NCBI RefSeq assembly: GCF_947623445.1
Contig: NC_135248.1
Span: 11,231,820-11,295,819 of the forward strand
Reading direction: 5' to 3'
From: Clavelina lepadiformis
Taxonomy: Eukaryota > Chordata > Ascidiacea > Aplousobranchia > Clavelinidae
Length of the DNA stretch: 64,000 nt
Part shown: in pieces, positions 27,998 through 47,800 of the stretch
Layout of the letters: every line of letters starts with the position of its first letter
How positions within the stretch are numbered: the stretch's first letter is position 1
Notes under the pieces: generated by a model
Told to the model about the DNA's origin: nothing
What the model saw: only the letters and a program-made list of their open reading frames with translations
Database searches by the model: none
Translations under genes and position numbers: made by a program

Positions 27998-30472
27998 TTA
28001 CCAACCAGGCCAAGTTGTCTTGGCTGAATTGCTTGAGTTTGCAACGATTGCAATAATAATAAGAACAACTATAAAGAATAGGATCATGTTATTTGACGAT
28101 TCTTGCTGACGAACTGGTTGCACTGTTCGTCGTTGAACTCGTTCAACTTCATCGCAATGAAAATGATTTTGACTGGTCTCTGTGTCCTGGAAAACGCACC
28201 TGCATAGGCTATACTAGTTTAGTGAGAGAATTTTTTACCAAGGCGAAACAGGAAAAATGAACTCAGTTTATCTTTTCAGTAGGCCTACTACAGTGTTTGC
28301 AATATTAACGCAGGGAGTATTTCAAAGTCGGTAGGCCGATAAGGTGTATGCGATATCGGAATATTTATTCTCTGACTGACGACAGTGCTTGTACACTTTG
28401 TGTAAGTTTATGCATTCGGGACAATGGTTCGTAGAAAGAATTTGTAACTTAAATTATTTTCAAACTTTGTGTTTCCAAGTAGTTTCAAGCTATTTAAATA
28501 ATACAGAAATGTTGATATAATATTATAAACGGATTTTCTAGACAAAAAAAAACTCGGAATATATTGGTTTATACCTCAGCCTTATAGCCTGAACCAACCT
28601 CGTCCGAGCTTTTGTTGGAGTTTCACTGTTTAGTATATTAGATTTGGATGATTTTGCTGTTAAAGGTGATTCGTTTCGGCAAGTCGAACTGTAGCTTTCA
28701 GATCCTAGTACGAAGTAGACAACCCGATTATATATAAAAATAAAAATATATAAATATTAAAATTGAAATATTAAAATTAAAATATCGAATGTATCATTAT
28801 ATCAATATCAATATCAAAATAATCAATTATAAATAATATCAGAATATCAATATTAAAATATCAGTATCTACACCGAAGAGGTCTCAATGTTGGTATTTTT
28901 ACAGTAAACTGTGGGCAGAAATATCATATTGAACCTAAATTTAGATCATCACCAGTGTGGTCGTTAAAATTAACCCGGTTTCTCGCATTTGACTTGCTAT
29001 TCCCAGCTTGATTTCCATTATAGGTTTGCTCCATGTCTTTAGGGTTGATGGTCTCGGACATCTGCAAGATAAAAGAAAGCGTTTCTTGATTAGCTCAATT
29101 GTTTTTGAGACTGAAACTGTCTTGCTTAAAACACGTACATTGGCAGAACTTTCTGGGAACAGATTGGCAGAGGCAGGTTTTTGAGAGTTCCATTTGTTCT
29201 AAAAAAACGCGGATAAAATATTTGCTGCTAGTTATGTTTGGAAGTTTGAACATCTGTGTATGTTTTCCGGCGCCATACCAGGATAGCCAGTTGCTGATTT
29301 AACTGTTGCGTTCGCTTGGAACGCTTCTTGAATATGGCGCTTTGGCTTTTATGACAATGTTCTACTTCGTCCCACCAGTCTGCGAAGAAAAAATGCAAGA
29401 TCAGTTTGGGATTTGATAAAACCAGATAAATTTTGCAAAGTTGGGCAACACCAATCTGAAATAAAACAATTTTTAAAATACGTATAATTTAATTAATAAC
29501 CAATAAAAATGAATCAAATAAGAACAGCCAGTATATATAGGATTGACGGAGTTATAGCTATAGCAATCCTTGAACAACAGTAATGGTTATTATATTACTG
29601 CTAAACTGAGAAAAATGTTTGTTTATAAAATGCAATAGTTTTCATTTAATAATCAAGTGGTAACAGCCAATGCACGATTGGTGACGAAGAGACATCAAAA
29701 TTTAAACCAAGAAAAATTTCTTGAATAAATTCCGCTAAAAACGCAACAATCCTTCATGGAAGCTGAACATAAAATGCTGATAGGCCTACTTGCAAATTTT
29801 CTTTTTACCACTTGTACAGAACAGGGACAGTGGCGATAGGGTGTAACCTGAACCCATTTTCCGTTGTTATCTTTCGATTTTCGAATCTCAATATGACATC
29901 CTTTGTTGATTGTGGTCAGTTTTCTGTCAGTGGTTGGGTTTTTAAAAATGACTGGAACTCGCGCTGTAACTCCTAAGATTTCCAGCACACGAAACATGTA
30001 GAGACGCCGATTGTCCAAACTATAAAAATCATGACACAGTTTCTTGCAAACCAGAGTTGTTTATAACTTGTATAACTTCTTTATAACGTCATTCAAGTAT
30101 GACGAGTATAATAGCTAAACCAGGTGGACAGTGGTGTTTACGGTATATCAGCCTATATAATTTGAAAAGCAAGTACAACAAATTGTAAGGGTACGAGTAA
30201 AATTGAAATTCGAGACAGCTTGTAGTTTATATAAGGTGTTGAAAAACTGAAATAAATATGGCGAGGATACGAAAGCAAGAATCAACTCGTTCCTCTGCTT
30301 ACCTGAAATAAAATTCGTCCAAAGGCACTACCTCGATCTTGGGAAAGTCGTCGATATTCAATTCACCCAGTGCTATTCGTTCACATACATTATTTATGGC
30401 TTCACCATTTTGAAAGTACATCGCTATCGAGTCTTGTGTGAATCTTATTTCTGACGGTTTGAGTGAAACCAT
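27998..30472 (-). CDS. DNRRLY-family protein with C-terminal membrane anchor, copy A
   Basis: No established function. Six phase-consistent exons (30472-30303, 30019-29790, 29379-29279, 29061-28935, 28704-28595, 28186-27998) give 308 aa. Residues 4-57 carry PSEIRFTQDSIAMYFQNG and DDFPKIEV. At the exon 1/2 joint comes SLDNRRLYMFRVLEILG, then LTTINKGCHIEIR. The pattern FTQD...F-G...FP-I-V...LDNRRLY resembles bacterial proteins with a ParB/sulfiredoxin-like fold (inference from motif shape). Exon 3 has NWWDEVEHCHKSQ and a basic KKRSKR. Exons 4-5 are polar and Ser/Thr-rich. Exon 6 ends in a hydrophobic helix (MILFFIVVLIIIAIVA, about 280-295) with a short tail, predicting a tail-anchored protein with the domain in the cytosol. 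The donors of exons 3, 4 and 5 (GTATGG, GTTCAA, GTTCAG) are weak, so those joints are less sure than exons 1-2. Copies B and C follow upstream in tandem. Confidence 0.65.
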
Positions 30473-31609
30473 TTCTTGTTGTCAGCCTAAGCTTTTCACG
30501 TCAATCTCTTTTTTAAACAAAGCTTTGAAGATTTAGTCGTCTAATCTAAGTTTCCACTTTTCAAATCAATACGCAAAGTTTCTTCTCTGCCTTTTCTGTG
30601 TTTTTGCTGATTGAGTACATTGCGATAATCTGCGACTGTAAATGCGCATATAAGCCTTGGTACTAGCATATACCTCCTGTCCGTAGCCATGAAGTTAGCT
30701 TTTGTGCAAAAAGCTAATTTGTAACGTCCTTCTGCTGGTTGTTCGACACACTCGAAATAAGGGGCATTTGCTAAAGCAAATTGACCTTGACCTTGACCAT
30801 ATAGTTTTTCTTACTCAAGTGTGGCTGAGAATCAGCCACAGATCATTTATTTTGAAATTGTGCAAAAAGTACAGAAAGTACTTTAGTTGGTTATAAAATC
30901 ATGCATATTACGCAATTATTTTTGTGTAGTTAATACTTTTTGGAACGATATCGAGAAATTTGCTTGATTTGACAGCTTGTGTCCCTTCGAAAGTAATAGG
31001 GCTCTTTACGCTCTAACTGGCACCAACTTAAGCTTTATAAAGAATAAACGAAGACTGTTTTACGAGTAATTGCATTCAGATAGAAGGTGAGCTTATTGAG
31101 GCGTAAAAGAGCCATTAATCATTCCAAAAGCGACAAAATCAAAATTATATTTGAAAAATGAAAAAGTTTAACGAAAATGCAAATAGGATATCTATGGAAG
31201 TGTTGAATCATAAGTTTAAATATTAGTAGGCCTACTGTAGCCTATGAAACTTGACGGCTTTTGTTGAAACAACGGAAATCTTCTGTACTGTTTCGGCTAT
31301 TAACCATAGTTTATAGCCGAAAAATCCTATAATGAGTGTGGCTGAGTGTAAGCCACGCTTCTAGAATTATCTTCCAAAAATCGCTCAAGTATATGATAGG
31401 TTTAGATCAAAGAGTAATTATCAATAAATGACAATAAGTTGCAAGTGTAGGCTTACTAGAAAAATAATCTTTCAATAATAGGTCACATATATTAAAGTTA
31501 ATTTAAGCACTGCTTGTGTCTGCTGGTGCGTCTTGTGATGTTTTACCTCTAACCTTTAATATCTACTACTTGCAAAGATTATTATACATTATTTTTTCTC
31601 TTGTTGTAG

Positions 31610-31797
31610 TATTTGCCCGAAAGCCTGCCATGAGAGACGCTCTCCGGAGAATGACTCGGCCGCAAACGAATCACAATCTGGACCCGAACCTTATGAGCCG
31701 AGGATTGTCCGCAAATGACGATTTTTTCGCCGCTTTCGACGGAGGCGTCTCCCACAAGACACACCAACATATAACCCTCATTAAGAGATTATTATAA
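31610..31797 (+). other. Possible orphan terminal exon, unidentified
   Basis: A good acceptor (TTTTTTCTCTTGTTGTAG) precedes a frame that reads ARKPAMRDALRRMTRPQ, NLDPNLMSRGLSANDDFFAA and ends TLIKRLL before a stop. The stretch is richer in G and C than its surroundings, as coding exons in this window are. No homology is recognised and no upstream exon was identified. Confidence 0.25.
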
Positions 31798-32437
31798 TTA
31801 GTGCCAAACGCGTTTTTGCTACATATTTTTGACAATAATTGCTTAACCACTAAATATTCTTAACCATCTTTTTCTGCGTTTATTCTTACTGACAATTATT
31901 CTTTGATTTAAGTTAGATTGTTTTTGCACTTGTCATTTCACTTTAACAATAATCATTACCATCCCTGCTTTAACACTGCCTGTAGGTTACAATGATTTCT
32001 TGCACGGCACGTTATGCTATTGTTGTAATTTTGCACACGTTCTTCCATAACTTGGTTGGCCACTGTTTACTTTGTGTTACTTGTTTCGCACCAATGCTTT
32101 TTCGAGCGCTAATAATTTTATGTGCTGCTTTAAGTGGTCACAGACAAGTACGCTTCAAGCGAATCGTGTTTGAAAGAGAAAGAGAAACAAAAGTCCTACG
32201 GTAGGGGGTTCCCCTGCGGCGACCGTTGTTCATAGATATCGTATTTATTCCTTAGTTAGATAGTTAGTCGTAGCTGATACTGCCAAGTTTTATTCTATCA
32301 TCATTTTTCAGCTTACATTCAAGGGCTTACAAAAAACTATCTTCAATTTCATATTGCCTGTTGTTTGTGAGATTGTCTTAGAGACGTAGAGAAAAAAACA
32401 GTACAACAGACCTATATCGCAGTAAACATGCAACTAC

Positions 32438-32946
32438 CAGAGGTGGGCAGTCGGTACTTTGAAAGTACCGTCGGTAACCGTACCGGTAGTTGGCAAAAAA
32501 ATGTAACGGCGTTTCCGGTATTCTGTACTATTTTAAAAAAGTAGTTTGGTACTCGGTACCGGTACTTTTTGTGTAAAAGATGCTGGTGTAAATTCAATGT
32601 TTGCCGCTATTATGCCCCGGTAAAGGTTAGTCCAGACCAAAACATATGTGACGTTAATCGCTTGCAATTTTTCTTGACATTTCTTGAATAAAAAAGATCA
32701 ACAGATGCTAAAATTAGTATTAAGGATTAATTAACATGTATTCTTGAAAACATACTTGTTAAAATTTTGACATTATCACGTGAAAAGTACCAAGTACCGG
32801 GGTCAACTGAAATTTCTTGAAAAAAGTAATTCGGTACAGAGATTCGGTACTTTTTTCAAAAGTAACGACGATACCGGTGTCCTTACCGAAAAAGTACCGC
32901 GGTACAGTAATTTGGTACTATAGTACCGCGGTACTGCCCACCTATG
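32438..32946. mobile_element. hAT-like MITE rich in GGTAC motifs, TSD GCAACTAC/GCAACTAT
   Basis: Termini CAGAGGTGGGCAGT and ACTGCCCACCTATG are inverted repeats. The flanks are GCAACTAC (32430-32437) and GCAACTAT (32947-32954), an 8-bp duplication with one mismatch. Sub-terminal regions repeat GGTAC/GTACC many times on both sides and can pair with one another. No coding capacity. Confidence 0.75.
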
Positions 32947-34431
32947 GCAACTATAAATCTATTTCCCAGAGGCTTGTTGACTGTTGCAGATTAAGGCGGG
33001 CCAAGGCTGATGTGGCTGCAGACCCAGACCCACTGGCAAAAATAAGCCTACCTGAATGCGATTGTCTTTATAAAATTTTAGCATATTTACCAAAAAAGTC
33101 GGTAGGTACATGCTTTTTGTAAAACCTTTATTGATTGACATACTGTCAAGCAAGCCCTGTATTGCGAAATGCAAATAAACATAAAATTTACAGTAGGCCT
33201 GGAGGCCTATGCAGTATTACAATGCTAAAGCAATAGTGGAATAACAAAGCATCTCAGAGATTAACTTTAATTTATTTCTATCAACTTATATGTTATTAAT
33301 TATTATACGATATATATAGCTGGTTGGAACTTTGGCATCTCTTAATCGTAAGTTATTCTTGTGTAACGAGGTGATCGTTTTTTCACAATTATTGACATTA
33401 TGGGACATTACATGTTTTTTTCAATTGATTATTATTCGCACCTTTACGGAATATTGCTCCGTGACCCTGGGAATATAATTAGTAGCACAACAAACAACTT
33501 TTAAAAATGAATATTACACATAAATTTCAAGCAGTGTCTTCATATAAATCTAAAGTGACTTTTCAAAAACTTTTTCTCCGTGCAAAAAGGATATTTGTTT
33601 GCTGATTTTTTTGATTCCTCATGTACTGTAGCTTCCTTTGACTTAAATCACTTGTTCAATTACAGACCTAGACCTGCAACGGTTACTTTAGCCTAATTGT
33701 CAAACGTTTGCTTACGAGTAAAAAAAAACAATTTTTAACGCTGTAATGCCTGTAGACATTAAAATCGTAACCAAAATAAAGATCGCCGTTCTTTAAAAAA
33801 ATTTTTTTAAACTTTACAGTGGTAAATTTTGTACTGATGTTGAAATGCCTGTGATTTATTTATTCCTGCCTATCTACCTTTGTCATCTTTGGCTTGAAAA
33901 GAGTTTTTGCACGACTTACTTGGCAATATTTCACTTATTGCTACGGAGCAAATCGTCGTAGACGTTTTCGGGTCCATACTACAGAGCCTAAATTTCCATT
34001 TCCATTTTGCGGTTTTCCTTGAAATTGTGATCGAAATTGGTACAAAGAAGATACCTATGAATCGCTATTGTTCAACCCATTGCTGCTTGCTTGCTTATCT
34101 AGATCCTAAATATTATCCTTTGCTTTCTGTTAAGCCAAACTGGATCGTGGGGGTCACTTTCATCTGTAGAGCACCACAAAGCTAGGCTACTTTGCACCAT
34201 ATTGGATTAAAAAGAACAGCTAATATGAAAAATTGTACTGTAGAAAGAATTTGCGCATATAAATGCTTATTCTAAAGTAGAATGCTGAGCAACATACAAA
34301 AAATTCAGCAAACAAACACCTTGGTTTGTAAAAATAACTTAGGTCATCGAACAATATAATTAATTGATTTCAATTAACGAAGAAGCAATACAAATTGTGT
34401 ATGAAGGTAATTCCCCTAATGCAGGGGTGGC

Positions 34432-35205
34432 CAGACCTGCTTCATGCTCGAGCCGCATATAACAAATTCTAGTTTTAAAAGAGCCACAACACAAACAAAA
34501 TGAAAAACACGAATTTATTCACTCACAACGAAGTGTAGCTATTTGATAAACATTAGTGCTGCGTGGTGATACTATGAATCTCCACCTGGGTTTCACCAAC
34601 TCTTTTTGCAATTATTAGTATAACCGTAACCAAGACTTAAAACTAGGTCAGCCCTGACGTACAGCTTCAATCTGACAGTTTACTTAACTACAGTGTACAA
34701 GTTAGCACACTTCTGTCCAATGATGTACTTTTTGGAGTGTAATTTGATTATTACTAATAATGAGTCCATTGTTATTACGTGTGATAGAACGCATTGTTTC
34801 ATAATCTGATAAAACAACTCCTCTAGACCGGGAAAATTGCATGTCTAATTCAACAATGCTAATTCATTAAAGAGCGGCAATCGAAGGCTCAAAGAGCCGC
34901 AGTTTGGCCGGTTCCACGACAATTAATCGTGGGAAATTGACCGCGAACAAACTCACCGGGGACAACTGACCGGAGGACAACTGACCGTGACGTAAATTTA
35001 CCTAGAACCAACTGACCTTAAATCATATTATCACTTAAATCATATAATTTGAATAAACAACAATGCTAATTTGCGTAAAAAATAAAAATAAAATGCGTAG
35101 CGGTTGATTTGTGTCGCCGGCCAATTTGTTGCCGGTCAGTTGACCACGACCAATTGTCGCCGGTGAATTTGTTCAATTGACGTGATCCCAGTTTGGCCAC
35201 CCCTG
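34432..35205. mobile_element. hAT MITE, TSD CCCTAATG, with an empty site at 50653-50680
   Basis: Termini CAGGGGTGGCCAGACC and GTTTGGCCACCCCTG are flanked by the exact octamer CCCTAATG at 34424-34431 and 35206-35213. The host repeat copy at about 50653 reads GTAATTCCCCTAATATAAAG with a single, uninterrupted CCCTAAT, which is the unoccupied site. The interior holds sub-terminal GAGCCGC blocks (AGAGCCACAACAC, AAAGAGCCGCAG). Another element is inserted at 34920-35188, close to the right terminus. Confidence 0.9.
34920..35188. mobile_element. Element nested in the hAT MITE, 10-bp target duplication
   Basis: Termini GGTTCCACGACAATT and the complement of GGATCACGTCAATTG form imperfect inverted repeats. 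The sequence CAGTTTGGCC occurs on both sides (34910-34919 and 35189-35198), consistent with a duplication of about 9-10 bp. The interior consists of repeated GGACAACTGACCG-like units. A Mutator-like relation is possible from duplication length alone but unproven. Confidence 0.55.
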
Positions 35206-36214
35206 CCCTAATGTAAAGCCGCAGTTCAACTTTCTAAACCCATTATAGCCTAGGCATATATATATATATCTGCTTTATTAAACAATCGAAATTTTTGAAT
35301 ATGATATATAGAGAATGTATTTGTTAAATATTTAAAAAAGTAAAGAGAAGAGATAATAAGATAAGATTTCCATTACACGTTTAGGGAAATACTGTTTGTG
35401 ATTATTCTTGACGCATTTTGTTTTGGATTAAATGGTAGAGAAAAAATTCCATACAGGCTCCTTGATACCTTTTATCCCCAAGCCCATCACGGTCTTCATC
35501 TGGCTCTGCAACTTGTATCTTGTGTTTCAGTGTTGATTACTGCACCATAACATGCGACTTGCAGTGAAGGGAGGTTTACACGAACTTACAATCAATCAAA
35601 TGTTGCAATCAAGTAAATACGGTATTTAGATTGGCATAAGTATTATAGGATTGATTTTAATTTCCATTTGGATGAATTAGATCTGTGGCGAGTTATGTTA
35701 TAATTTTTATTAAAAAAGCGTCACTTTTTCGTTTTTGTAAATCTTGTAAAAAATGTACAGTATTTATTTACAAGATTTTGTTTAGATTTCACCATTTACA
35801 AAATGGAGCACTGCGAGATGCAAGTCTAATGAACGCATTACACAATTTTTTTGCTACTGTTAATAGACTGGAACCGTCATTTTGTTGGTCCTTTTCTACT
35901 CTGCCGTTGCATGTCTGTCGGAAGAGGCGATGTCGGAATTGTTGTGGACATGGGGAGCTTACATTCATTTTCCTATAACTCGCTTGGCTGTCGCCATGCG
36001 CCTGCATATAAATGTACTGAATCAGTTTTGAAGTAGAACATTTTTAAATCGTTACCTTGTTCTAGACATCACATTTTCTTCGTACTGGAAAAGATACCTA
36101 ACCAGTTACCACTGTTTCGTGTCTTGTCGTTTTAGGTAAATCAAATTTTCAATTAAATGAAACTATGTTATATAACTTATTTACAATGGTGCTAAACTTG
36201 TTTGACTTAATAAC

Positions 36215-39200
36215 CTGTTTTATTGGTTCAGGTTGATGTCTCTTTACTGTGAAGCCGTAACCAGCAGTTTCTACTTTACTAAAAATCCAACGTCTATGCT
36301 CATGTACGTCGTCGCCAAAATCTGTCAACAAAAAGCTATACTTTTATTGTTTTCTATTAAGATATTTTCCACGATGTTATGCTTGTGATTTTGATCGAAC
36401 AAATAGCTTCAAACGTCAAACAAATGCATTAATTTTTGTAATTTAACTTTTTTACTAAACTGTATAGAAGTCTCTTTTGACAAAACGAATGATATTTTGT
36501 TTATTGAGCCGGCTAAAATTTCAAAATTTTTTACGTTTGATACTTGTTTTTCTGTTTTGCATGGCGATGGTTTAAATGTGACAAAATTAAGAAAGTTTGG
36601 TTTTGTTTAAACTATGTTAACTGTATGTTTGTAATTCTTTTAACTGAAAACCATAAATATTTACTCAAACTTTTTGTGCAGAATCGGTGTAATTTTCAAG
36701 CAACTTGGAAAGCTGGAATTAGTTTTGTAAATTTAACCTGCTGTTGTTTCACCAAAAAAACGGCGATTATGATGAATATCGATCGATCTTGAGAACGCAG
36801 CATTCTTGGGTGAATAACACTTTACTATACACCCATTTTATTAATACAGTTTTTTACCTGCATGGCTTGTGCCTGTCCCATAGACCTTGTTGTCATCATT
36901 TGACTTCTTTTTTTGTTTGCGCTTTTTGTGTTTTCTCTTTTTTATTCCTGTCTTGGTGTTATCCGTCTGCTGAAAAATACAGATTCTAAAAAATAACTTG
37001 TAGTTACGTGTTTCGTTGTCGCCCTAACTATTTTGTATTAATTTGATACACAATGTAATAGAACTGAATTACAATTAACCGTAATTCTACTTTATTGGTA
37101 CAAGTCTGATAGTTGTGTTTTACCCTGAGCATAAAAGAATGTTTAAACACCCGGGTTGGTTTACCTGGACAAGTCGGTATCTTAGCTGGTTGATGTGACA
37201 TTGATTTTGTTGACTCCACCATTCTGAATCAATTTATTGTCGGAAAATTTAATTTACTCACTTTTAACTCAAAATTTTTTTTTAATTCTGCAGCTTACCT
37301 GGAAAAATAAAGCTCCTTTCATTGCAAGAGCAATGTTTATATGTTCTGTCAATAAGCCGCCCTCCATTGCTATCTTTTCCACCCCGAAGTATGACGTGGC
37401 ACCCTCTGTTTTGTGTAGTCACTGCTCTATAATTATTTCTGTCTACCAGCTTCACCTCAATTTCTTCAATAAACTGGAGTTTTTCGAGTACTCGGAAAAT
37501 GTAGAGACGACGATTGTCGAGACTAATATTTTGAAAAAAGGTAAGGACTGAACTTCATTACGTTGTAACGTGTGCAATGTTGATATAATTACGTCTCTAA
37601 ATTTACATCTGTATCGCGTAAGGTTGGTTACCGGATCCGTGGTAACTTTTGTAATACTTATTTTCAAATCAAGTGGGTAATATATCATAGTTACTTCTTA
37701 CATTACTTGTTGTTGCCTATTCCTTGGAAAAATTATGGCTTAAAATAGTAAATTGGAATTTGTATAAAATTCAATAAGTTTATACAAAATAAAAGAACGT
37801 TTACATAGATTTTAAAAGGGAATAAAAATATAAATAAATCAATACAATAAGTTCATGTAAATTTTAATAAATATAAACAAACTCAAATAAATTCACTTAT
37901 ATTTATGTTATTTTGAAATGAACATATACAAAAACCAAACAGTTTTGAACAAATTTAAAAATTAACATAAACACAAATAAAATCCAATTAATTTATTCAG
38001 AACCGAATAGGGTAATAAATAGGTAATAAAAATTGATAAATTAAAAAAATGCAAATCAATTTATGTAAATCTGTATGATTTTGAGTAAAATTTGAAAAGT
38101 TTATACATATTTAAGCCAATTTATTTCAATTCCAAAAAAATTAGATAAATGGAAACAAAGACTTACGAGCTCATCAAAAATTGATTAGATTTATATTAAT
38201 TAAGGTTTTACCGATGTATTGGCAGATGATCGATTATTGGCTTTGTTGGCTATCGTGTTTGGGCCGAAAAATCGTATTCTATAATTGTTCGTGATTAAAA
38301 CTGTAATAACTCATAGATTCTCAATATTTTCGTAACAAACTGGATTAACTACGGCTTATTTAATCGGAAGCCATCGATATTGGCAGATATTGCATATACA
38401 ATCAATTGGTAATTCCTGATATAAATTAAACTAAAATCAATTGAGTGAATATTTAAATATTTCAATTATTCTTGTTATTTGAATGAATTTGATTATTTCA
38501 AATAAATCCATTTTTCTTCACTCGTATGTCACTATTGCGACGGTCTAGTTATGATGAGGTAACCAGGCCACCGTAGTGGGAACAAGAAAAAGAAAATTGC
38601 GTAATTTTTCCATTTCTGAATCTATTTCATTTTTCTTGAATCTATAGGAGTTTTTTAATTTAGTTTGTGTGAACCATTTCAGTTTGCTTATATATATATG
38701 TTTTAATTTTTATGAAATAATTCATTTAAAAAATGCTTTTATATATCAATTAGCTTAAATTTATTTGAGTAGCCTATACAAGATATTATACAAATTGAAA
38801 TAAAACTATATTGTTTTGTAAAAACTTATTCAAATTTACATGAAATGTTTTGATTATTTTTGAATTCATATGAAATTATTTGAACTTTCATAAATTTGTT
38901 CTAATTTGCATATACTTCTACAAATCTATTTCAAATCGTAATTTTTACTACAAGTAGCAAAAGATTTAATTGATAATTAAATTATAAATCTATTTGAAAC
39001 GCGGATAAGTAAATAAGTAAGTAACTATGGAAACGGTAAGCGTTGTTACGTCTGTTATTGAGTAAGAGGCTGCATTAATTATTTGTTGGAGCCGTACCTG
39101 TAGTATTTGTTACGTCGTGCGTAGACCTTTATCTTGGGGAAGTCATTAACGTTGCAATATCCACGAACGATGTCTTCACAAGTTTTGTTTACCAAATTGC

Positions 39201-39273
39201 CATTTTGGAAACGCATAGCTACGGTATCCTGTGTAAATTTGATCTCGGATGGCAACAGCTGAAGGACGTTCAT
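36215..39273 (-). CDS. DNRRLY-family protein, copy B (3' end unresolved)
   Basis: Paralogue of copies A and C. Five phase-consistent exons: 39273-39098, 37522-37299, 37223-37165, 36969-36858 and 36321-36215. Exon 1 gives LPSEIKFTQDTVAMRFQNG and VNDFPKIKV; exon 2 gives SLDNRRLYIFRVLEKL, TTQNRGCHVILRG and YKHCSC; exon 3 gives WWSQQNQCHINQ, matching the WW...CH...Q block of copy A. Exon 4 is strongly basic (KTGIKKRKHKKRKQKKK) and could be a nuclear-localisation or nucleic-acid-binding stretch. Exon 5 reads DDVHEHRRWIFSKVETAGYG. A further 29-nt exon (36084-36056; YEENVMSRTR) fits in phase. I could not place a membrane-anchor exon like those of A and C. The first intron (1.6 kb) is extremely AT-rich. 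Function unknown; fold assignment is inference. Confidence 0.6.
37700..39000. repeat. AT-rich low-complexity intron with degenerate short repeats
   Basis: Inside intron 1 of DNRRLY copy B, the first part is dominated by AAATAAA/ATAAACAAA-type words and the last part by TTCAAATTTACATGAAAT/TTGAATTCATATGAAAT-type words, so the two halves look partly complementary. This could be an old fold-back structure or plain AT drift. Confidence 0.35.
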
Positions 39274-41519
39274 GATTGTTTCTACTCATTGATCATGCTC
39301 CTGGAAAGATTGTCTCTTACTTAATATCAGCAGGACATATATTTCACAAATTCCTCGCTGCTTAAATTCTGCCCATAAAAAGGCCGATTCATTTCCGTCA
39401 AGTAATTTAAGGAATGGTTTTTCATTAAACTGCCGGCCTGGTTTGGTTGAATTGATTTGTTTGGTTTTGTGACGTTTTCAACCCATTACATTCCTACATA
39501 TTAATCCGTGATATTTCTGTCACGCCAAACTATTTGTCCGCAAATTCTTGCTTTAACGCCTCGTCACAAAGCCGCAAAATCGTGTTCTTAGCAACGTATC
39601 AGTGCAAAGGTCATGTTTTAAATGAAAAATGTTAAAGATTGCTTTTTCAAACCCAAAACAAAGCATTCTTACAGGGTGATACGACGCAAAAGTAATTTAC
39701 ATACAGTCCTTTCTATTCAAGCGCCCCATGTAGAATGCACACATCCTAATACGCTAATCAAAGTTTGTAATCTTACACGAACGGAGTTTCTAACACTGTT
39801 GAGGTAGACGTCAACGGAACATTTAGGCCTACGTTGCACGAATACAACGTGGGAGATTAAGTCAAAAGTAAAACATGTGGTTAAAAACATGCAACTACAC
39901 TTGTTTAGTATAGTAATGTATAGGAATGTATATGTACCAAACGTGAAAGAAATAAAATCCTTCTACGTCCTTCTATGCATCGTGCTTTCTACTCAGGAGT
40001 CAGTCCCTTGGAAGCATTCATGCTTTTAAGCGTGGTCAATGAAGACATAGTCTATACATAATAATGTTCATTTAAAGTGCAATTTAAAACATATCGAAGC
40101 ATGTTCATGAAGGTCCTCTAAAATTTGCTTCGTGGTTCCCAAATAACTAAAGACAACAGTTTACGGCTGACAATAATCTATCTACAAGAAGCCACATACT
40201 ATACTTGTACCAACTGAACTGAACTGACTGACAAGGTGTGGATAAATTATTTCTTTGTTTGAATGAGAATTTTAACTCCGACTTGCGTAAATATTAACCT
40301 GCTGTATATTTGCTAATGCTAAATTCACTTCGGAAAATTTATGAACTTTGTCACTTTTGACGAACAGAAGATATGCTCGTTAACCATTAATTTCTCGGAA
40401 ACGTTTGACAAAGTAACCTGTAAACAAGCTTAAAAGCGACACAATGTATTTGTATTTCTACCATGCACTTTTTTGTGTTTCTTACGCTTACTGGTTAAAC
40501 CTTTTGACAATATATACAGCGTACAGTGGACTGTACAGTAACATTTTCACAATAACTCGATGTGACACAAATTACGAGTCTAATTGAGACACATACACAC
40601 TAGCTTAATCTAGAGTCTTTCATTGAAAACAAATAAATGTTGGTATTAAGATCATGCGTTATTTTGTTTTACGTTTAATCAAAAAACAAAACTGGTATAT
40701 CAGCGGTACCAGTAGTCGACCACACGTGTAGGGAGCTGGTTTCTACATTAGTACTCCAGTTTGAGTAACTTTGCTGTAATTTAATTCATTTAATTTAATA
40801 ATAACAGTGCAAAAAAATGATTTCAGTTATCATATCAGTAAGTCGTACTTGAATATAGATTTGGATTAGAAGATATATTATTAAATTACTATATTATAAC
40901 ATTTTTTAAACATTAAGTTGACAAACAAACTGTTAAAGACTGTGTGAAATAGTTTGAAACGTGCGACCTTTTCCGGTGAAATAGTGATATAGCCTTTGAA
41001 TATTTATTTATAACTTACATTCACTCTGAACGTTGAACTCATTTGTTTCACGCCTCTCACCGTATCTTTTTGGCTTCTATTGTAGTACACGTATGTATTC
41101 TGTTTGCAATTTAGATCCTAGTTGGATAAAAAGCGTATTTTCCTTTTAAAGATAACACTTTGCTTTGTGAGACTGCACAGTATAACTAAGAATTTTTATT
41201 ATGATGGATCCCTTAATCAGTTCATCATCCTCAGCAGTTTCTGTACGTCATCGGAGTCAAGAACTGGGCTAATATTATATAGTGGGCAGGAAACAATGAA
41301 AAAGCTTATTACCTGCACCACTTATTTTGAAGTAGCACATATTAATGTAGTACAAAGAACAAAACAAATACAACGTGTACAGCAAGCTAGCAAGGCCTGC
41401 AAACAATATACGTGACCACCAAAAATAGGCGACAATGTAAAGTGGTTTTCTTCCACAGTTATTTATAAAAATATTTTCATAGTGAATCAAGTGTAGCATT
41501 ATGCTTATACTGATCACTT
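39274..41519. other. Spacer between DNRRLY copies B and C
   Basis: No gene, tRNA or clear transposon recognised over about 2.2 kb. It presumably holds the promoter of copy B just above 39273 and the 3' flank of copy C just below 41520. Confidence 0.4.
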
Positions 41520-42715
41520 CTAAAAAAACAACTTATGTTGCGCAACGAATACGATGAAAAGAGCAACGAAGAGCCAGCACAAAAACTTGCACGAAATTCC
41601 TGATTCTTCTTGTCGAAGGGTGAGTCGTGCTGTTTGCTGCTAAAAAGTAAAAAAATATAGTTTTATTTGATTCTTTGTACTAAAAAACAGCAGTATATGT
41701 TTATGTTGTCCGCTGAAACGCGTTCATATCGCCGTATAGGTACGCACTATGCAATACCGCATAAGCAAATATTTTATAAATGAACGATCGCCTCAATACA
41801 TGACGGAAAAGCTAAATAGTTTAGTTTTGTTTTGTCATAACGTATTCTGGAAACCGTTTCCTTTTTTATTTTTTTGATTTTACAAGTTTATATTTATTTA
41901 ACTTTGGTTATTTTATTTTTAAGTTAAGATTCTTAAATTGTTTCATCGCACTTTATAAAAAATTTGTTGTAGTTTGGAAGTTGGTGAATAATATAATCGC
42001 TTACGTAGTTGTCGTAGTTGTCGTAGTTGTCGTAGTTGTCGTAGTTGTCGTAGTTGTCGTAGTTGTCGTAGTTGTCGTAGTTGTCGTAGTTGTCGTAGTT
42101 GTCGTAGTTGTCGTAGTTGTCGTAGTTGTCGTAGTTGTCGTAGTTGTCGTAGTTGTCGTAGTTGTCGTAGTTGTCGTAGTTGTCTCTTTGCGTAGACTCC
42201 GGTTCAACATTATGGAGAGGAGCAGGCGAGCGAGGCAACATCACGTTTTTTCCGTTTCTAAGGCAACGGTGATAAGGATTCCACCATTCTACAAACATAA
42301 AAATGCTGCATGATTGTAACCATATAATTGAGAGCTTAAATTTTTATGGAAATTTTGCACTTTCTCGCTAATACTGTTATTTTTTCGATAAAAAACTTGG
42401 CTTTCGAACTTTCGAAAACCGTTTCTAAACTTAAAGAATTAACAAATTTCCTAATTTCTTGGAAATATCAAAAACATGTAACTAATACCTGGATAACGAT
42501 GGAAACGATAGGCAAAACATAAGCAATGTTTGTAGGTCAATGTTCTAATCCAACCGCCATTTATGTCCATTTTATTTCTAAGTTTGACGTGACAACCTTC
42601 GTTTTCTGTAGTAACCTCTCGATGACCAATTCTGTTTGTCACTCGCACCCTGATAGTTTCCAAAACCCCAAGGTTTTCCAGAACCCGAAAGATATACAAT
42701 CGCCGATTGTCCAGG
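41520..42715 (-). CDS. DNRRLY-family protein with (DNY)20 linker and membrane anchor, copy C (first exon decayed or missing)
   Basis: Three exons join in phase: 42715-42489, 42288-42005 and 41636-41520. The first gives LDNRRLYIFRVLENLG, TTENEGCHVKLR and YKHCLC. The second starts EWWNPYHRC, equivalent to WWDEVEHCH of copy A, runs through LHNVEPESTQR and then 20 uninterrupted Asp-Asn-Tyr triplets, ending at a GTAAGC donor. The last reads RLTLRQEESGISC followed by the hydrophobic LCWLFVALFIVFVA and a short HKLFF tail before TAG, matching the RQQESSNN-helix ending of copy A. This predicts a tail-anchored protein whose domain is tethered by a highly acidic, tyrosine-rich repeat. The expected first exon exists only as a damaged match at 43256-43410, so this copy is either a pseudogene or uses another first exon. 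Confidence 0.6.
42005..42184. repeat. Coding minisatellite, 20 perfect copies of GTAGTTGTC
   Basis: Exactly 180 bases of a 9-bp unit with no mismatch seen by eye. On the minus strand it encodes (Asp-Asn-Tyr)20 in frame with the second exon of DNRRLY copy C. Its lower edge abuts the exon's GTAAGC donor. Perfect identity indicates recent expansion or homogenisation; copy number probably varies between individuals. Confidence 0.95.
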
Positions 42716-43255
42716 CTGTCAACATAGAATTAAAACTGCAATGGAGTTTATTTTGCTTAATAACGTGCATTGTTCTAATCATCAATCACAACTTGTAACC
42801 GTTTTGAAATGCAATGATCTTTGTAAATATACAGCTGAAAATTATACTTTAAACTATAGCTCGAAAGCCACGTGCTCAAAACTGATGATGCCCGCTTCGG
42901 GTGAAATATATTTCTGGTTTTTAAATCTGCAAGCTGACTCTGGTTATAACTTTGTATTTTACTCCATACTAAAAATAAAGCCTATGTAGTCAATAACAAT
43001 TTTTCGTTGTTTTGTGTTGAAATGGCGATAATGACTTGTTGTTAAATATTAAAATATTCATATTATTGCTCTTATACAGGAGTGGCTTAATCAAATGCAT
43101 AATGATAATAATACATGTACTGTATATGCAGAGTTACATGTTGTTTGCGTTTGTAAAAACTTGCACATTTGATGCCTTAAAGCTAGATTTAAACAATGTC
43201 ATATATTTAAGCTTGTTGCAATCTGTACATAACTTAACAAGTTTCCATCATCCAC

Positions 43256-43410
43256 CTGAAATACGAATTGTTTTCCTTTAAAAATCCTATTGGATGGGAA
43301 ATTGTCCACGTCTAGTTCCTGAAGAACAATCCTCTTACCGTTTCTCATTGTAACGCCATCTTCAAAGCTCATTGCACATTTGAGCTAAATTTCACTTGTG
43401 ATGCTGAAAC
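43256..43410 (-). pseudogene. Damaged first exon of DNRRLY copy C
   Basis: Minus-strand residues SASQVKFSSNV and, in another frame, AMSFEDGVTMRNG and DVDNFPSNRIFKG align with SEIKFTQDTVAMRFQNG...DFPKI of copies A and B. One base is missing between the two parts. The donor at 43254-43255 leaves phase 0, whereas the next exon needs phase 2. The position expected for the start codon (just above 43410) has no ATG. It is either a decayed exon or a sequencing or assembly error. Confidence 0.55.
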
Positions 43411-44264
43411 TATATTAACTATCTTGCTACTAAATTCCAGCCCATATCCTCAGTCTATATCGCTAAAGTAAAGCCGACCTTTCAAGATAATCGATTGCAT
43501 TTTACTCTAAAAATCACGTTTAGTCTAACTTTGAAAGTTAAGCCTTAGTTGCTAAAGCTTCGTTTAACCAGCACAAAAAGTATTTCACTTCTGTTCTCAT
43601 CTCCGAGTCGCACAGAAAACACAAAAGCGTATTTGTGTGTTGTTGCTGCATTCAACGAGCAGCTGAAACGTGTTGACACATCTTGTTCCAGTTTTTATAC
43701 ACTAACCTGGAAAACGTTCTTTTTGTATCAATTCCTTGTGCAATTTTTAGGTTTATTATCTTCAGATGTTGATAAGTCAACATCAATGTCCTTTAGCTCC
43801 TAGAACATGTAAGCAATAAAGTTCCTTAACGATACCAACCGAAAGCGATTGTTGCCATGAAATACAGACCGTACAATCTCAATGCAAGTAAACATGTTGG
43901 TTGATTAAAATGTGTAAATCATTTTTTTGAATGTGCATCAAATTCCTGAAGCATATCGTTGATATAATGAGTCTTACAGCGAAGATTAATTTTCTATTTA
44001 AACCACTCTTCGCATCAACAATAACAAACCAAACGTCTACTGTACACAAACTGTTCTGTCACCGCATATAATACAGTTTCAATACCAAAATGAGCGCATA
44101 GAAAAAACCTTTCACTTGGTTTAAATTTAGTTTGTTTAACCTAACCCCATAACGATGGAGAGTCTACATTGAATTCTACTACAGACACAAAATAAGATTT
44201 GTTTGTGAAAGAAAACAACCAAAGCATATTTGAAACGATATGCGAGGATAAATAAGATGTAGAT

Positions 44265-44769
44265 CAGTGGTTCCCAAACTTTGTCTACTCGCGTACCATT
44301 TTTTTGGTTCATGTTGCGTTCGCGTACCACCTACATTGTAGGTGGTCCGACAAAACTCCAGAATTCACAAATAAAAAATGATAAGCAAAATGTTTACTAC
44401 AGGCTCGTGAATGTTAAACAAAAATTAGTCGAACTTTTACCGCCCTCGCTACAGTGCTACAACATAACTAAAGTATTACAAAAACTAACTTCAAGGATTT
44501 GTTATGTAGTAATAAACGACGTTGTATTTCGTCACAAAGAAACCCTGTTTTATAATCCAATGCGTCAATACCCTAAGAAATTAGTATTCAGTAGGGAACA
44601 TGGCATGAAATTTCACGCTCTACTTAATTTATGTGAATTAAATTAATGCCGAGGACAATAAAAGATCTTTTGTGATCGTTTAGTGTGAATTTGATAAGTT
44701 GCTCGCGTACCACCTGGAAGACCTTCGTGTACCACTAGTGGTACGCGTACCATAGTTTGGGAACCACTG
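44265..44769. mobile_element. hAT MITE, TSD ATGTAGAT
   Basis: Termini CAGTGGTTCCCAAACTTTG and ATAGTTTGGGAACCACTG are near-perfect hAT-type inverted repeats, flanked by the exact ATGTAGAT at 44257-44264 and 44770-44777. Sub-terminal GCGTACCACCT motifs occur at both ends. There is no transposase. It lies just beyond the 3' end of the glutathione synthetase gene. Confidence 0.9.
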
Positions 44770-44807
44770 ATGTAGATCTATTGAATGCAGATTTAAAAAG
44801 TCGGAAT

Positions 44808-44850: not shown

Positions 44851-47800
44851 TCAAACAAGAATTGGTGAATCGAGCACCGCTGCTCCTGTGAGGCAGCGAC
44901 CGTCGTTACTTCCACCAGGTGTTGTGCGCAGCAGATGGCCAGAGGAGAAGTTTTCGATAATTTTGTCTCCACGGCTGAAAAGAAGAAAATGTAAAATTCT
45001 ACCGCATTATGGTCACAGGCAATTTGCTACGAAGGTAAAAGATTTACTGATATCAGCAGACACATAAAGTTAGGTGAGTGAAACAAGAATGATGATGTAA
45101 AGCGTACGTCAGTATAACTCCAAATGTCCCGAACTCGCTGACAGCTTTGACTTCTTCAAAACCATTGGCAGTGACAAAAACGTTGTCAATTGGCTTCGGG
45201 CAAATTTTATCCATCAAAGTATAAGCACATCTTCGTTTATCGCTGCCGACCTCATTGAATAGTTTGATTATGTCATCACCGAAGTGATTGTCTCCTGATG
45301 ATCGGGACAAACAAAAGCTTGTTTATTATCAGACAATTGATCAAGAGTTGTTGAGAGTATTCTAGATAAATCAAAATAGTTTCAAATCTTTCACCTTCAC
45401 CCTCGCGCTCTTCCTTCACAACGTAAGAGTCGGGGTTTTTCATCGCCATTTGCACGAATTTGTCTCCATCAGAGTTCTTAAATGTTAAGAAAGTCATTTA
45501 ACCTCTGTGAAAAATCTATGTAGTATCTGTGGCAAGTGTTGGAGTCTTCAAACAACAAAAACTGAAACTGAGCTACGAAAGGTCAAGGCGAGATAAAAAA
45601 AGAAAAATCTTCACAGCAATGAAATTATTTCATAAGCAGCGAGGGATCAGAGCGAGCTTGGCGCGAAGAAGGATTTGCACCGAGAGGCGAAGTAGCGATT
45701 GATCTGTCGCGATACGGTAGCGCCACCGCACGATATAAAAAGCTCGTTATCGTGAATGGTAATATGATAAAAACTTTACAAATATTCTTATATTTGTATA
45801 CTGTATTTGTAAATATTCATTATTCAAATAATGGCACTGCTCGTCTTTTCATCGACGGCAATTTACTCCTTTTTATTTTACGACAACACATTATTATTTT
45901 TGATTTGTCTGACTGCGTTGCCACGATTTCATCGCATAACCGCGCTACCCTTTTTTAATTCGATGGCGATTTCATGGAGGGTTTCTTTTCCAATGACCCA
46001 ATTTCTTTTAACACGTTGTGGCGCTAGATGTCCAAGATGGCTGTGGACATCTTATACATCATTTCTGGTTTTACATTAACTCTAAGTAAAATTGAATTTC
46101 TTTATAATCAACCTGAAGGACAAAGGCATATTATTACGAAAAAAAATAAATGTCTTGCTGATTACATTGGAGGAATTTCAAATCAAACGTGCATTCGTTT
46201 TGGTGATGTAAATCAAAATTTCTCACAACGTATTGGTGTTAATGTTACTTCTTTACCATCTCCAGTGGATAGAATCCAACGAAAGTGCTCCTCACTTGTC
46301 GCGCCACCTCGGGATCATCAATAAATTTCTCAAGGACATTCGGTTGTGCCAAGGCTTCCTGCACCCTTTTGAACCCGGCAAGCTGATATCCAACCACAGG
46401 ACTTACCACTGCACAACTCATTTCAATTGTTCGCCGGATGTCCCAAGACTTGAGAAAAACAAAAACCGCAGCATTAAGCAATTGTTGTTACAAAATAAGT
46501 TCAACCAGTTCAACAATAATTCAATAGTTAAATAATTCAAGGGCAAATCAATCTGTGTCAACTATCAAGTCAAATTTGAAGTTGCAAGTTTTGCAACTAA
46601 ACTCCATCTTATCTCTATAGCGAAGTTTTATATGAAAAGTCATTTGAAATGACGAAAATTTTTTGAAAATCTTAACAAACTGAGATAAAGTTTTTCTTCG
46701 TTACATCAGAATTCATGTTTACTGTATTATAAACTACGTCACTGCGCTTTCTCATGAGTCATTCACATGCAACGCATCATCGGGTTATTTTTGTGCAATA
46801 TTTTGCGTTTACATTTCACTGGCGATCTATCAAATTATTGTAATCACTGAACCATCAAAATTAGCCGACGGTGACGTCAGGGTCAAGGTTACCCGCTCAT
46901 TGATGTAATCTTCAGGGCGGTACCCAGTCTGGAAGTAAACGACCGCGACCTCTTCATTGTTTCTGGTGGAACATGAAATTAGGGATATATTCACAGTATA
47001 CGCATTGACAAAAAGTTAGTCGATAAATATTTGTAGTTTTAAAGGTGGGTTTAACAGTAGATTCTAGTCAATCTAGTGTTATTGGTTTCAATACAAAGCT
47101 ATAAAAGCTCATAAACTAAACAAGTTGTCTCTAAGAATGTGATGGATCGTTATAAAATATGAAAAATATTCTTACACCATAAGCTTCTTATCTGGTGTTA
47201 GCATAACACAGCCGAAGAGTTGTGAGAATTTCTTCTTTCTAATGACGATATCTTTATTAACTTTAGAAATTGCATCTTCCATCGCACGTACATCAAAATT
47301 GTTTGGATCACACTCGTTAATCATGAAGAGAAAAATAGCGTCGGGATTGTCGTAAGCTTCCCAAGCTGCTTGGAAACCAAAACCAATCTCGCTCATGACT
47401 TTATTCGAAGGCAATTGTGACGTAAGAGTTTCCATTCCTGCATCTTTCAAGATACTGGAATGAACGGAGGTTAATTTGCTGCCGAATTCCATAAAAGCAC
47501 AAGCCAGAGTGTTCATTTCAATCTGCTTCGGAATGTGAGATTCTTTTCCATTTTCATCGACCTCGAGATGAAACAAGTAATCGGAGCGAAAAACGCCCAA
47601 CTCCAAGCCCTGGATAAAAATCAGCAGTAAAAATGTTATGAACATACAAAACAATAAGAGAAATTTCCTTTACATTCTTTCCAACTTGTCAAAGTAAATA
47701 CTGACCTTTCTACCTGAACACTTTGAAGCTTTGTAAAGATCGTACAATCTCTTTATGAAATCGTCAACATTGACAAGACTGTAAAAGAATACAAATAACT

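What the first reader, a model, noticed from the sequence alone, without database searches (positions are those of the whole stretch)
27998..43410. Tandem cluster of membrane-anchored DNRRLY proteins with a possible ParB/sulfiredoxin-like fold
Three same-strand paralogues share a first exon (SEI-FTQD--AM-FQNG...DFPKI-V), a second beginning LDNRRLY-FRVLE and a third beginning WW-----CH; splice phases match between copies, except at the damaged first exon of copy C. In A and C the last exon encodes RQ-E followed by a single C-terminal hydrophobic helix. The core motif recalls bacterial proteins with FSQDSI...DNRRLYAF patterns that I associate with a ParB/Srx-like fold. A eukaryotic, tail-anchored, tandemly expanding version is not something I know as described. 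The linkers differ strongly: Ser/Thr-rich in A, Lys-rich in B, (DNY)20 in C. The domain may be conserved while its tether evolves fast.
Basis: partly seen in the sequence, partly recalled or inferred. Interest (0 to 1): 0.85.

Follow-up and report, generated by a model that had tools for sequence, protein, structure and literature searches.

The report
Membrane-tethered bacterial-toxin-like domains in tunicate
A sea squirt carries a large gene family built on a small domain otherwise found at the tips of bacterial toxins, with some members tethered to membranes by very different tails, which suggests a bacterial weapon domesticated for a new cellular use.

Summary
On the minus strand of a chromosome whose size matches Clavelina lepadiformis, copy A is a clean 7-exon, 339-aa gene model and copy B a clean 4-exon, 195-aa one. 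Copy C keeps exons 2-4 with (DNY)20, but its exon 1 is broken. A and C end in a single hydrophobic helix. B does not; it ends in a polybasic tail.

The domain is a family of at least 29 units on seven chromosomes, under purifying selection where measurable (12 of 17 pairs, dN/dS 0.14-0.52). The significant relatives found here are bacterial, two of them C-terminal domains of polymorphic toxins (E 4e-13 to 5e-8). Features match Tox-ParBL1, described in 2012 with a predicted ParB fold and already noted in metazoa (PMC3482391).

My profile test supports a ParB relation only when bacterial rows are included. AlphaFold was too poor to judge (pLDDT 47.7).

So the ParB reading is probably right and the domain itself is not new. 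What my literature searches did not find described is the chordate expansion with swapped C-terminal addresses and two-domain forms. Function (a cytosol-facing effector, perhaps immune) is inference.

The parts
30303..30472 (-). Copy A exon 1: N-terminal half of the domain (SEIRFTQDSIAMYFQNG...DFPKIEV), start codon included
   Evidence: hit by B exon 1 at 5.6e-13
29790..30019 (-). Copy A exon 2: C-terminal half of the domain (LDNRRLY...TTINKGCHIEIR...HCPC)
29279..29379 (-). Copy A exon 3 (WWDEVEHCH)
29139..29198 (-). Copy A exon 4, linker
28935..29061 (-). Copy A exon 5, linker
28575..28704 (-). Copy A exon 6, Ser/Thr-rich linker
27998..28199 (-). Copy A last exon: ERVQRR...RQQE then a hydrophobic helix (about 28031-28087) and about 10 residues to the stop
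   Evidence: 37% identity over 38 aligned columns to the last exon of a copy outside the window, E 0.025
39098..39273 (-). Copy B exon 1
37299..37522 (-). Copy B exon 2
37165..37223 (-). Copy B exon 3 (EWWSQQNQCH)
36841..36969 (-). Copy B last exon: polybasic tail (GIKKRKHKKRKQKKK), no hydrophobic helix
43290..43420 (-). Copy C exon-1 region: pieces of the domain in different frames, with a stop; broken
42489..42715 (-). Copy C exon 2, open; dN/dS 0.52 against the copy at C9:11321010
42005..42288 (-). Copy C exon 3 (EWWNPYHRCL) running into (DNY)20; donor site at the end of the repeat
42004..42184 (.). Perfect 9-bp tandem repeat, 20.1 copies, 100% matches
41520..41639 (-). Copy C last exon: LRQEES then a hydrophobic helix (about 41541-41597) and about 6 residues to the stop

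Best explanation
A and B (and formerly C) are members of a lineage-expanded tunicate family whose N-terminal domain is homologous to a C-terminal domain of bacterial polymorphic toxins, most probably the Tox-ParBL1 family of the ParB/sulfiredoxin superfamily. Shown by sequence: end-to-end homology to the bacterial domain, conservation of [DN]NRR, purifying selection, tandem clusters, variable tethers. Inferred: the protein starts at the domain with no signal peptide, so the domain faces the cytosol; the C-terminal tail (membrane helix in A, C and one neighbour; polybasic in B; Cys cluster in another copy) gives it an address. Inferred further: the [DN]NRR loop binds a phosphate or nucleotide as the GERR loop of ParB does (recalled), so the protein acts as a tethered phosphotransfer, nuclease or nucleotide-switch effector. 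I think an intracellular defence effector is the likeliest role (about 0.3); the domain identity is much surer (about 0.8).
For: Bacterial relatives cover 93-97% of the domain at E 4e-13, 5e-9, 5e-8. The shared pattern runs from RFSQDSI to FTTxNxGxxVxVR, with F, N, R, R invariant over 13 rows. In Streptomyces the domain follows PT-HINT (E 1.6e-16); in Haliovirga it follows a weak PT-TG match (E 6.3e-4, below Pfam cut-off) and precedes a DUF7660 gene (E 6.2e-28). Zhang 2012 defines Tox-ParBL1 by an N-terminal [ST] and an [NT][RT][RT] motif, with HINT, RHS and other toxin architectures and metazoan members. [DN]NRR in 20 of 22 tunicate rows examined and 4 of 4 bacterial. Profile match to ParB_N in the expected register, DNRR on GERR. 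dN/dS below 1 in all 12 of 17 pairs where dS was not saturated. Local clusters group together in the tree.
Against: Tunicate rows alone show no profile match to ParB (5 of 60 decoys score as high). No Pfam ParB_N match and no PDB relative by sequence. AlphaFold pLDDT 47.7 and its Foldseek search gave no match at E<=0.001, with no ParB or sulfiredoxin in the 50 rows listed. The type member of Tox-ParBL1 was not compared. The S/T positions of the first motif are missing in 6 of 22 tunicate rows each. No transcript, activity or localisation data. Role in defence is unsupported by any direct result.
Confidence: 0.6

Rival explanations
1. The domain keeps the fold but not catalysis: it is a binding or scaffold module (as the GHH toxin domain of teneurins became a signalling domain), and the diversity lies in the tails.
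For: Two of 22 tunicate rows lost the NRR motif and six lack S/T at each of the two motif-1 positions. Second, degenerate units sit beside canonical ones on C1 and C2. The teneurin precedent is stated in PMC3482391 section 47, part 1.
Against: 20 of 22 rows keep [DN]NRR, which is hard to explain without a conserved chemical or ligand role; binding alone could still explain it.
Confidence: 0.3
2. It is an unrelated small alpha/beta fold that only resembles ParB around the RRL helix.
For: Weak profile statistics (hhalign probability 9.7% for A4, 21.5% for A3); no structural confirmation.
Against: 46-column match in the expected register, 1 of 400 shuffled decoys as high, and two natural control profiles at P 0.11 and 0.17; published HHpred match of Tox-ParBL1 to ParB (paper's own value).
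Confidence: 0.15
3. The domain is an old animal family that bacteria took up into toxins, rather than the reverse.
For: Direction was not tested; only four bacterial rows were in hand and the tree is midpoint-rooted.
Against: In bacteria it sits in standard toxin architectures, and Zhang 2012 reads it as acquired by eukaryotes from toxin systems.
Confidence: 0.1
4. The copies are bacterial contamination, or non-functional debris.
For: Copy C is broken in exon 1.
Against: Introns with GT-AG borders, at least 29 units on chromosome-size contigs, dN/dS 0.14-0.52.
Confidence: 0.03

Closest known systems
Tox-ParBL1, toxin domain of bacterial polymorphic toxins (Zhang et al. 2012, PMC3482391)
   Same: N-terminal S/T and NRR motif; homologous bacterial domains follow PT-HINT or pretoxin regions; metazoan members already noted in that paper
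   Different: Here the domain is at the N terminus of short proteins without toxin delivery parts, split by an intron in C9 and C4 copies, expanded to at least 29 units, with C-terminal addresses and an extra His (18 of 19 rows) after the domain that the four bacterial rows lack
ParB N-terminal domain (Pfam PF02195)
   Same: Helix, strand and RRL-helix register aligns: DNRRL on GERRL
   Different: No Pfam-level match; DNRR instead of GERR; no DNA-binding or dimer domain in A or B
Sulfiredoxin
   Same: Same superfamily if the ParB fold is right
   Different: No GCHR-type cysteine motif (motif recalled); different flanks
Animal proteins descended from bacterial toxins (teneurin GHH domain, CD38-type cyclases, as told in PMC3482391 section 47, part 1)
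   Same: Toxin domain put to a cellular use
   Different: Another domain; here a large recent expansion with changing tethers

Membership tests
Tox-ParBL1 | [NT][RT][RT] motif, last two residues mostly R | tested here: met
   [DN]NRR in 20 of 22 tunicate rows and 4 of 4 bacterial rows; A and B have DNRR.
Tox-ParBL1 | Conserved N-terminal serine/threonine | tested here: met
   A and B keep it; 16 of 22 tunicate rows at either of two candidate positions, 4 of 4 bacterial. Absent in C6 and some C3 rows. Which position the paper means was not stated in what I read
Tox-ParBL1 | Profile relation to ParB | tested here: inconclusive
   With bacterial rows P=0.0033, 1 of 400 decoys as high; tunicate rows alone P=0.068, 5 of 60 decoys as high
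Tox-ParBL1 | Homologous domain at C terminus of bacterial polymorphic toxins (HINT, RHS, pretoxin) | tested here: met
   Streptomyces PT-HINT 1.6e-16; Haliovirga PT-TG 6.3e-4, below cut-off; Sinorhizobium no other domain found
Tox-ParBL1 | Direct similarity to the type member, NGK_2271 | not tested
   Not fetched
ParB/sulfiredoxin superfamily | ParB/Srx fold | tested here: inconclusive
   AlphaFold2 on a bacterial relative with six rows: pLDDT 47.7, pTM 0.34; Foldseek uninformative
Pfam ParB_N (PF02195) | Score over the family cut-off | tested here: not met
   No match for A or bacterial relatives; none in the whole genome at E<=10 while the control rang in 11 of 14 genomes
Sulfiredoxin | Catalytic cysteine motif | tested here: not met
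   DNRR at the equivalent place; the Srx motif itself is recalled
Tail-anchored membrane proteins | Single hydrophobic helix close to the C terminus | tested here: met
   A and C and a neighbour at C9:11319324-11319518. B: not met. Insertion in a membrane was not tested

The most novel reading that the evidence does not exclude
A chordate has built a multi-gene intracellular effector system from a bacterial polymorphic-toxin domain: one conserved cytosolic catalytic head, tandemly duplicated and delivered to different membranes or compartments by swapped, fast-changing tails, with degenerate second heads as built-in regulators, serving defence or self/non-self conflict in a colonial animal.
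Probability: 0.2. Interest if true: 0.82.

Novelty: new variant of a known kind. Interest (0 to 1): 0.5.

Why it matters
Animals have repeatedly turned bacterial toxin domains into signalling and immune parts, but the intermediate stages are seldom seen. A family with a constant head, a changing tether, intact and broken copies side by side and one- and two-domain forms would let one test directly whether a ParB-like toxin domain is still an enzyme in animals and what the change of address does.

Tried and rejected
Pfam, NCBIfam and PHROGs on the exon 1-2 product of A: no family at E<=1. Full-length A gave four Pfam matches, all in the linker or tail and below cut-off (LAP1_N, SNARE, DUF5501, Ac76), none on the domain; B none. 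PADLOC: one sub-threshold match outside the domain of A, none for B. PDB by sequence: nothing credible. The one genome-contig scan gave a single locus (L048) with a 39-residue match inside a long unrelated ORF, rejected. IMG/VR: five scans; first none of 76 candidates, the others one and the same contig. Phages: two matches at E 0.7 and 7, and none with the bacterial query. Search of 395 genomes of the phylum of that MAG: one match at 4.4e-4 that I could not confirm from the single frame I translated. Of 15 plasmid records matched at E<=10, 12 had E 5 or more and were dropped as chance.

AlphaFold2 on the bacterial relative plus five window exon rows: too poor; Foldseek on it meaningless. First hhalign against ParB used 26 rows of which 3 were wrong ORFs, then the 23 others; the decoy script timed out; the numbers used are. 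DUF7660, the gene beside the Haliovirga toxin, was not found in the tunicate genome, but the control rang nowhere, so this shows nothing. Single-strand folding of the repeat: nothing of note.

Considered and rejected: contamination (introns, chromosome-scale spread); helix exons belonging to other genes (phases fit and the tail recurs in a neighbour, though without transcripts this stays open).
Full report
What the window is. Chromosome-scale contigs of the window's genome (28.78, 26.53, 25.73, 25.07, 24.62, 20.77 and 15.73 Mb for C1-C6 and C9) match the lengths printed for Clavelina lepadiformis (28.79, 26.54, 25.74, 25.07, 24.62, 20.77, 15.73 Mb; PMC10884593, passages only). The identification rests on sizes alone; the total held here is 209.06 Mb in 95 contigs against 210.1 Mb in 102 scaffolds in the paper.

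The genes. Copy A is a 7-exon gene model of 339 aa and copy B a 4-exon gene model of 195 aa, all introns GT-AG and phases consistent. Copy C joins in phase from exon 2 to a stop, with (DNY)20 at the end of exon 3, but its exon-1 region carries pieces in different frames with a stop after the first. No transcript evidence was available. The joint exon 1|2 is confirmed by paralogues elsewhere that encode both halves in one open frame (L033, L034, L035, L037, L039, L040, L043, L044, L045, L046, L047).

The family. Merging by hand the hits with E<=0.01 in at least one of them gives 29 domain units: C1 3, C2 3, C3 4, C4 4, C5 5, C6 4, C9 6 (list printed). The tool says such counts are lower bounds; two weaker units (C1:6993794, E 0.015; C2:5302924, E 0.16) would add to it. 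In the tree of 22 tunicate and 4 bacterial rows, rows of one chromosome tend to group (C9 five rows 94/88; C6 four rows 91/88; each C4 pair starred), as expected of local duplication; the root is drawn at the midpoint only. Of 17 pairs compared, 12 gave a dN/dS, from 0.14 to 0.52; in 5 the synonymous sites were saturated. The frames were taken stop to stop, so a few intronic codons may be included. Copy C exon 2 against its nearest copy gave the highest value, 0.52.

The tails. A ends ...ERVQRRTVQPVRQQESSNN + hydrophobic helix + about 10 residues; C ends LRQEESG + helix + about 6 residues. The copy at C9:11321010 has, downstream on the same strand, an exon ending in a helix (Kyte-Doolittle 3.61) after ...EANRVQRYLTAQAAHQQ, 37% identical to A's last exon over 38 aligned columns, E 0.025 in the small set searched. 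The phases of that neighbour were not modelled. B ends instead in a polybasic stretch. The copy at C9:11455268 has a long open frame ending in a Cys/basic cluster (CLRWITRKFCCCG...). For the copy at C9:11327033 I recognised no clear tail. On C4 a hydrophobic stretch (Kyte-Doolittle 1.83) lies directly before a second domain unit, about 0.6 kb downstream of the first, which suggests domain-helix-domain proteins. On C1 and C2 a canonical unit is followed by a degenerate one lacking the NRR motif or changing it. In the intact copies the Met lies just before the domain, so I infer no signal peptide and a cytosolic domain; an upstream exon or trans-splicing cannot be excluded.

Relatives. tblastn of a tunicate domain against 72,556 plasmid records matched 15 at E<=10, of which three are significant: Haliovirga abyssi 4e-13, Streptomyces globisporus 5e-9, Sinorhizobium chiapasense 5e-8; the other 12 have E of 5 or more. 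The three also find one another at 6e-23 or better. A fourth relative lies on one IMG/VR contig. In Streptomyces the domain is the C-terminal part of a 727-aa ORF after PT-HINT (E 1.6e-16); in Haliovirga it follows a weak PT-TG match (6.3e-4, below cut-off) and is followed by a DUF7660 gene (6.2e-28); the 163-aa Sinorhizobium ORF had no other Pfam match. The alignment of 4 bacterial and 9 tunicate rows shows the pattern [IV]RF[ST]Q[DN]S...DxPxIxV...YSLDNRRL...FTTxNxG...VR end to end. I did not search other eukaryotes; no collection for that was open to me.

What is known. Zhang et al. 2012 (PMC3482391; I read passages, section 25 whole and section 47 part 1) define Tox-ParBL1 as a toxin domain with predicted ParB fold, an N-terminal [ST] and an [NT][RT][RT] motif, associated with HINT and RHS among others, present in metazoa and several other eukaryotes, with an HHpred match to Thermus ParB. 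Our family fits the motifs ([DN]NRR in 20 of 22 tunicate rows, 4 of 4 bacterial). I therefore place it as a probable Tox-ParBL1 relative; the type member was not compared. My searches of the paper library for ParBL1, Tox-ParB, ParB with polymorphic toxin and sulfiredoxin, tunicates with toxin transfer, tail-anchored toxin relatives, and ParB sulfiredoxin found no listing that describes this animal expansion; they cover open-licence PMC papers only and I read titles and abstract starts, apart from the papers named here.

Fold. Against 56 ParB_N domains, the mixed profile A4 scored 21.5 (P 0.0033, probability 9.7%) over 46 columns, DNRR on GERR; 0 of 60 and 1 of 400 column-shuffled decoys scored as high; two natural control profiles gave P 0.11 and 0.17. 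The four bacterial rows alone scored 24.2 over 12 columns, 0 of 60 decoys as high; the tunicate rows alone 14.8, 5 of 60 as high. Pfam ParB_N finds nothing in the genome at E<=10, its control ringing in 11 of 14 genomes. AlphaFold2 and Foldseek were uninformative. So the ParB relation is likely, resting on the bacterial bridge and on the 2012 paper, not on a structure.

How it may work. Shown: a conserved head, changing tails, selection for the protein. Inferred: cytosolic head, tail as address. Inferred with less support: the NRR loop handles phosphate or nucleotide, as the equivalent loop in ParB does (recalled); the head then acts as phosphotransferase, nuclease or nucleotide switch at a membrane. 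The defence reading rests on analogy with other toxin-derived animal proteins and on the expansion. A further mark is a His shortly after the domain in 18 of 19 tunicate rows long enough, not in the 4 bacterial rows (I had cut the rows near that motif, so this is a description, not a test).

Verdict. Real genes, real family, kinship to a bacterial toxin domain well supported, ParB fold likely but not shown here. The domain and its presence in animals are known; the tethered, expanded, two-headed forms look like a new variant. Interest 0.5.

Noticed in passing
C1:6993794, C2:5301043, C2:5302924 (loci L040, L043, L039): Degenerate second domain units follow canonical ones; the NRR motif is changed or gone (NNRKLY, VKTLKLY, VRPLMLY).
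   Followed up: partly
C4:21218457-21226150 (loci L036, L018, L041, L015): Two gene pairs that look like domain - Ser/Thr linker - hydrophobic stretch - domain.
   Followed up: partly
L010 and L088, C9:11453498-11454667: A 390-codon open frame downstream of the domain ends in a Cys/basic cluster (CLRWITRKFCCCG) instead of a membrane helix; looks like a lipid-modification site.
   Followed up: no
L049:3746-4573: Haliovirga abyssi plasmid: toxin-tip ORF with this domain followed by a DUF7660 gene; DUF7660 may be its immunity protein.
   Followed up: partly
window 44255-44779: MITE-like element with 29-nt terminal inverted repeats, 90% complementary.
   Followed up: no
window 34421-35206: Another MITE-like element with 16-nt terminal inverted repeats, 94% complementary, in the interval between copies A and B.
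   Followed up: no
window 7194-7802, + strand: ORF matching Pfam Glyco_transf_10 (fucosyltransferase), E 6e-49.
   Followed up: no
window 47172-47654, - strand: ORF matching eukaryotic glutathione synthase ATP-binding domain, E 9e-18.
   Followed up: no
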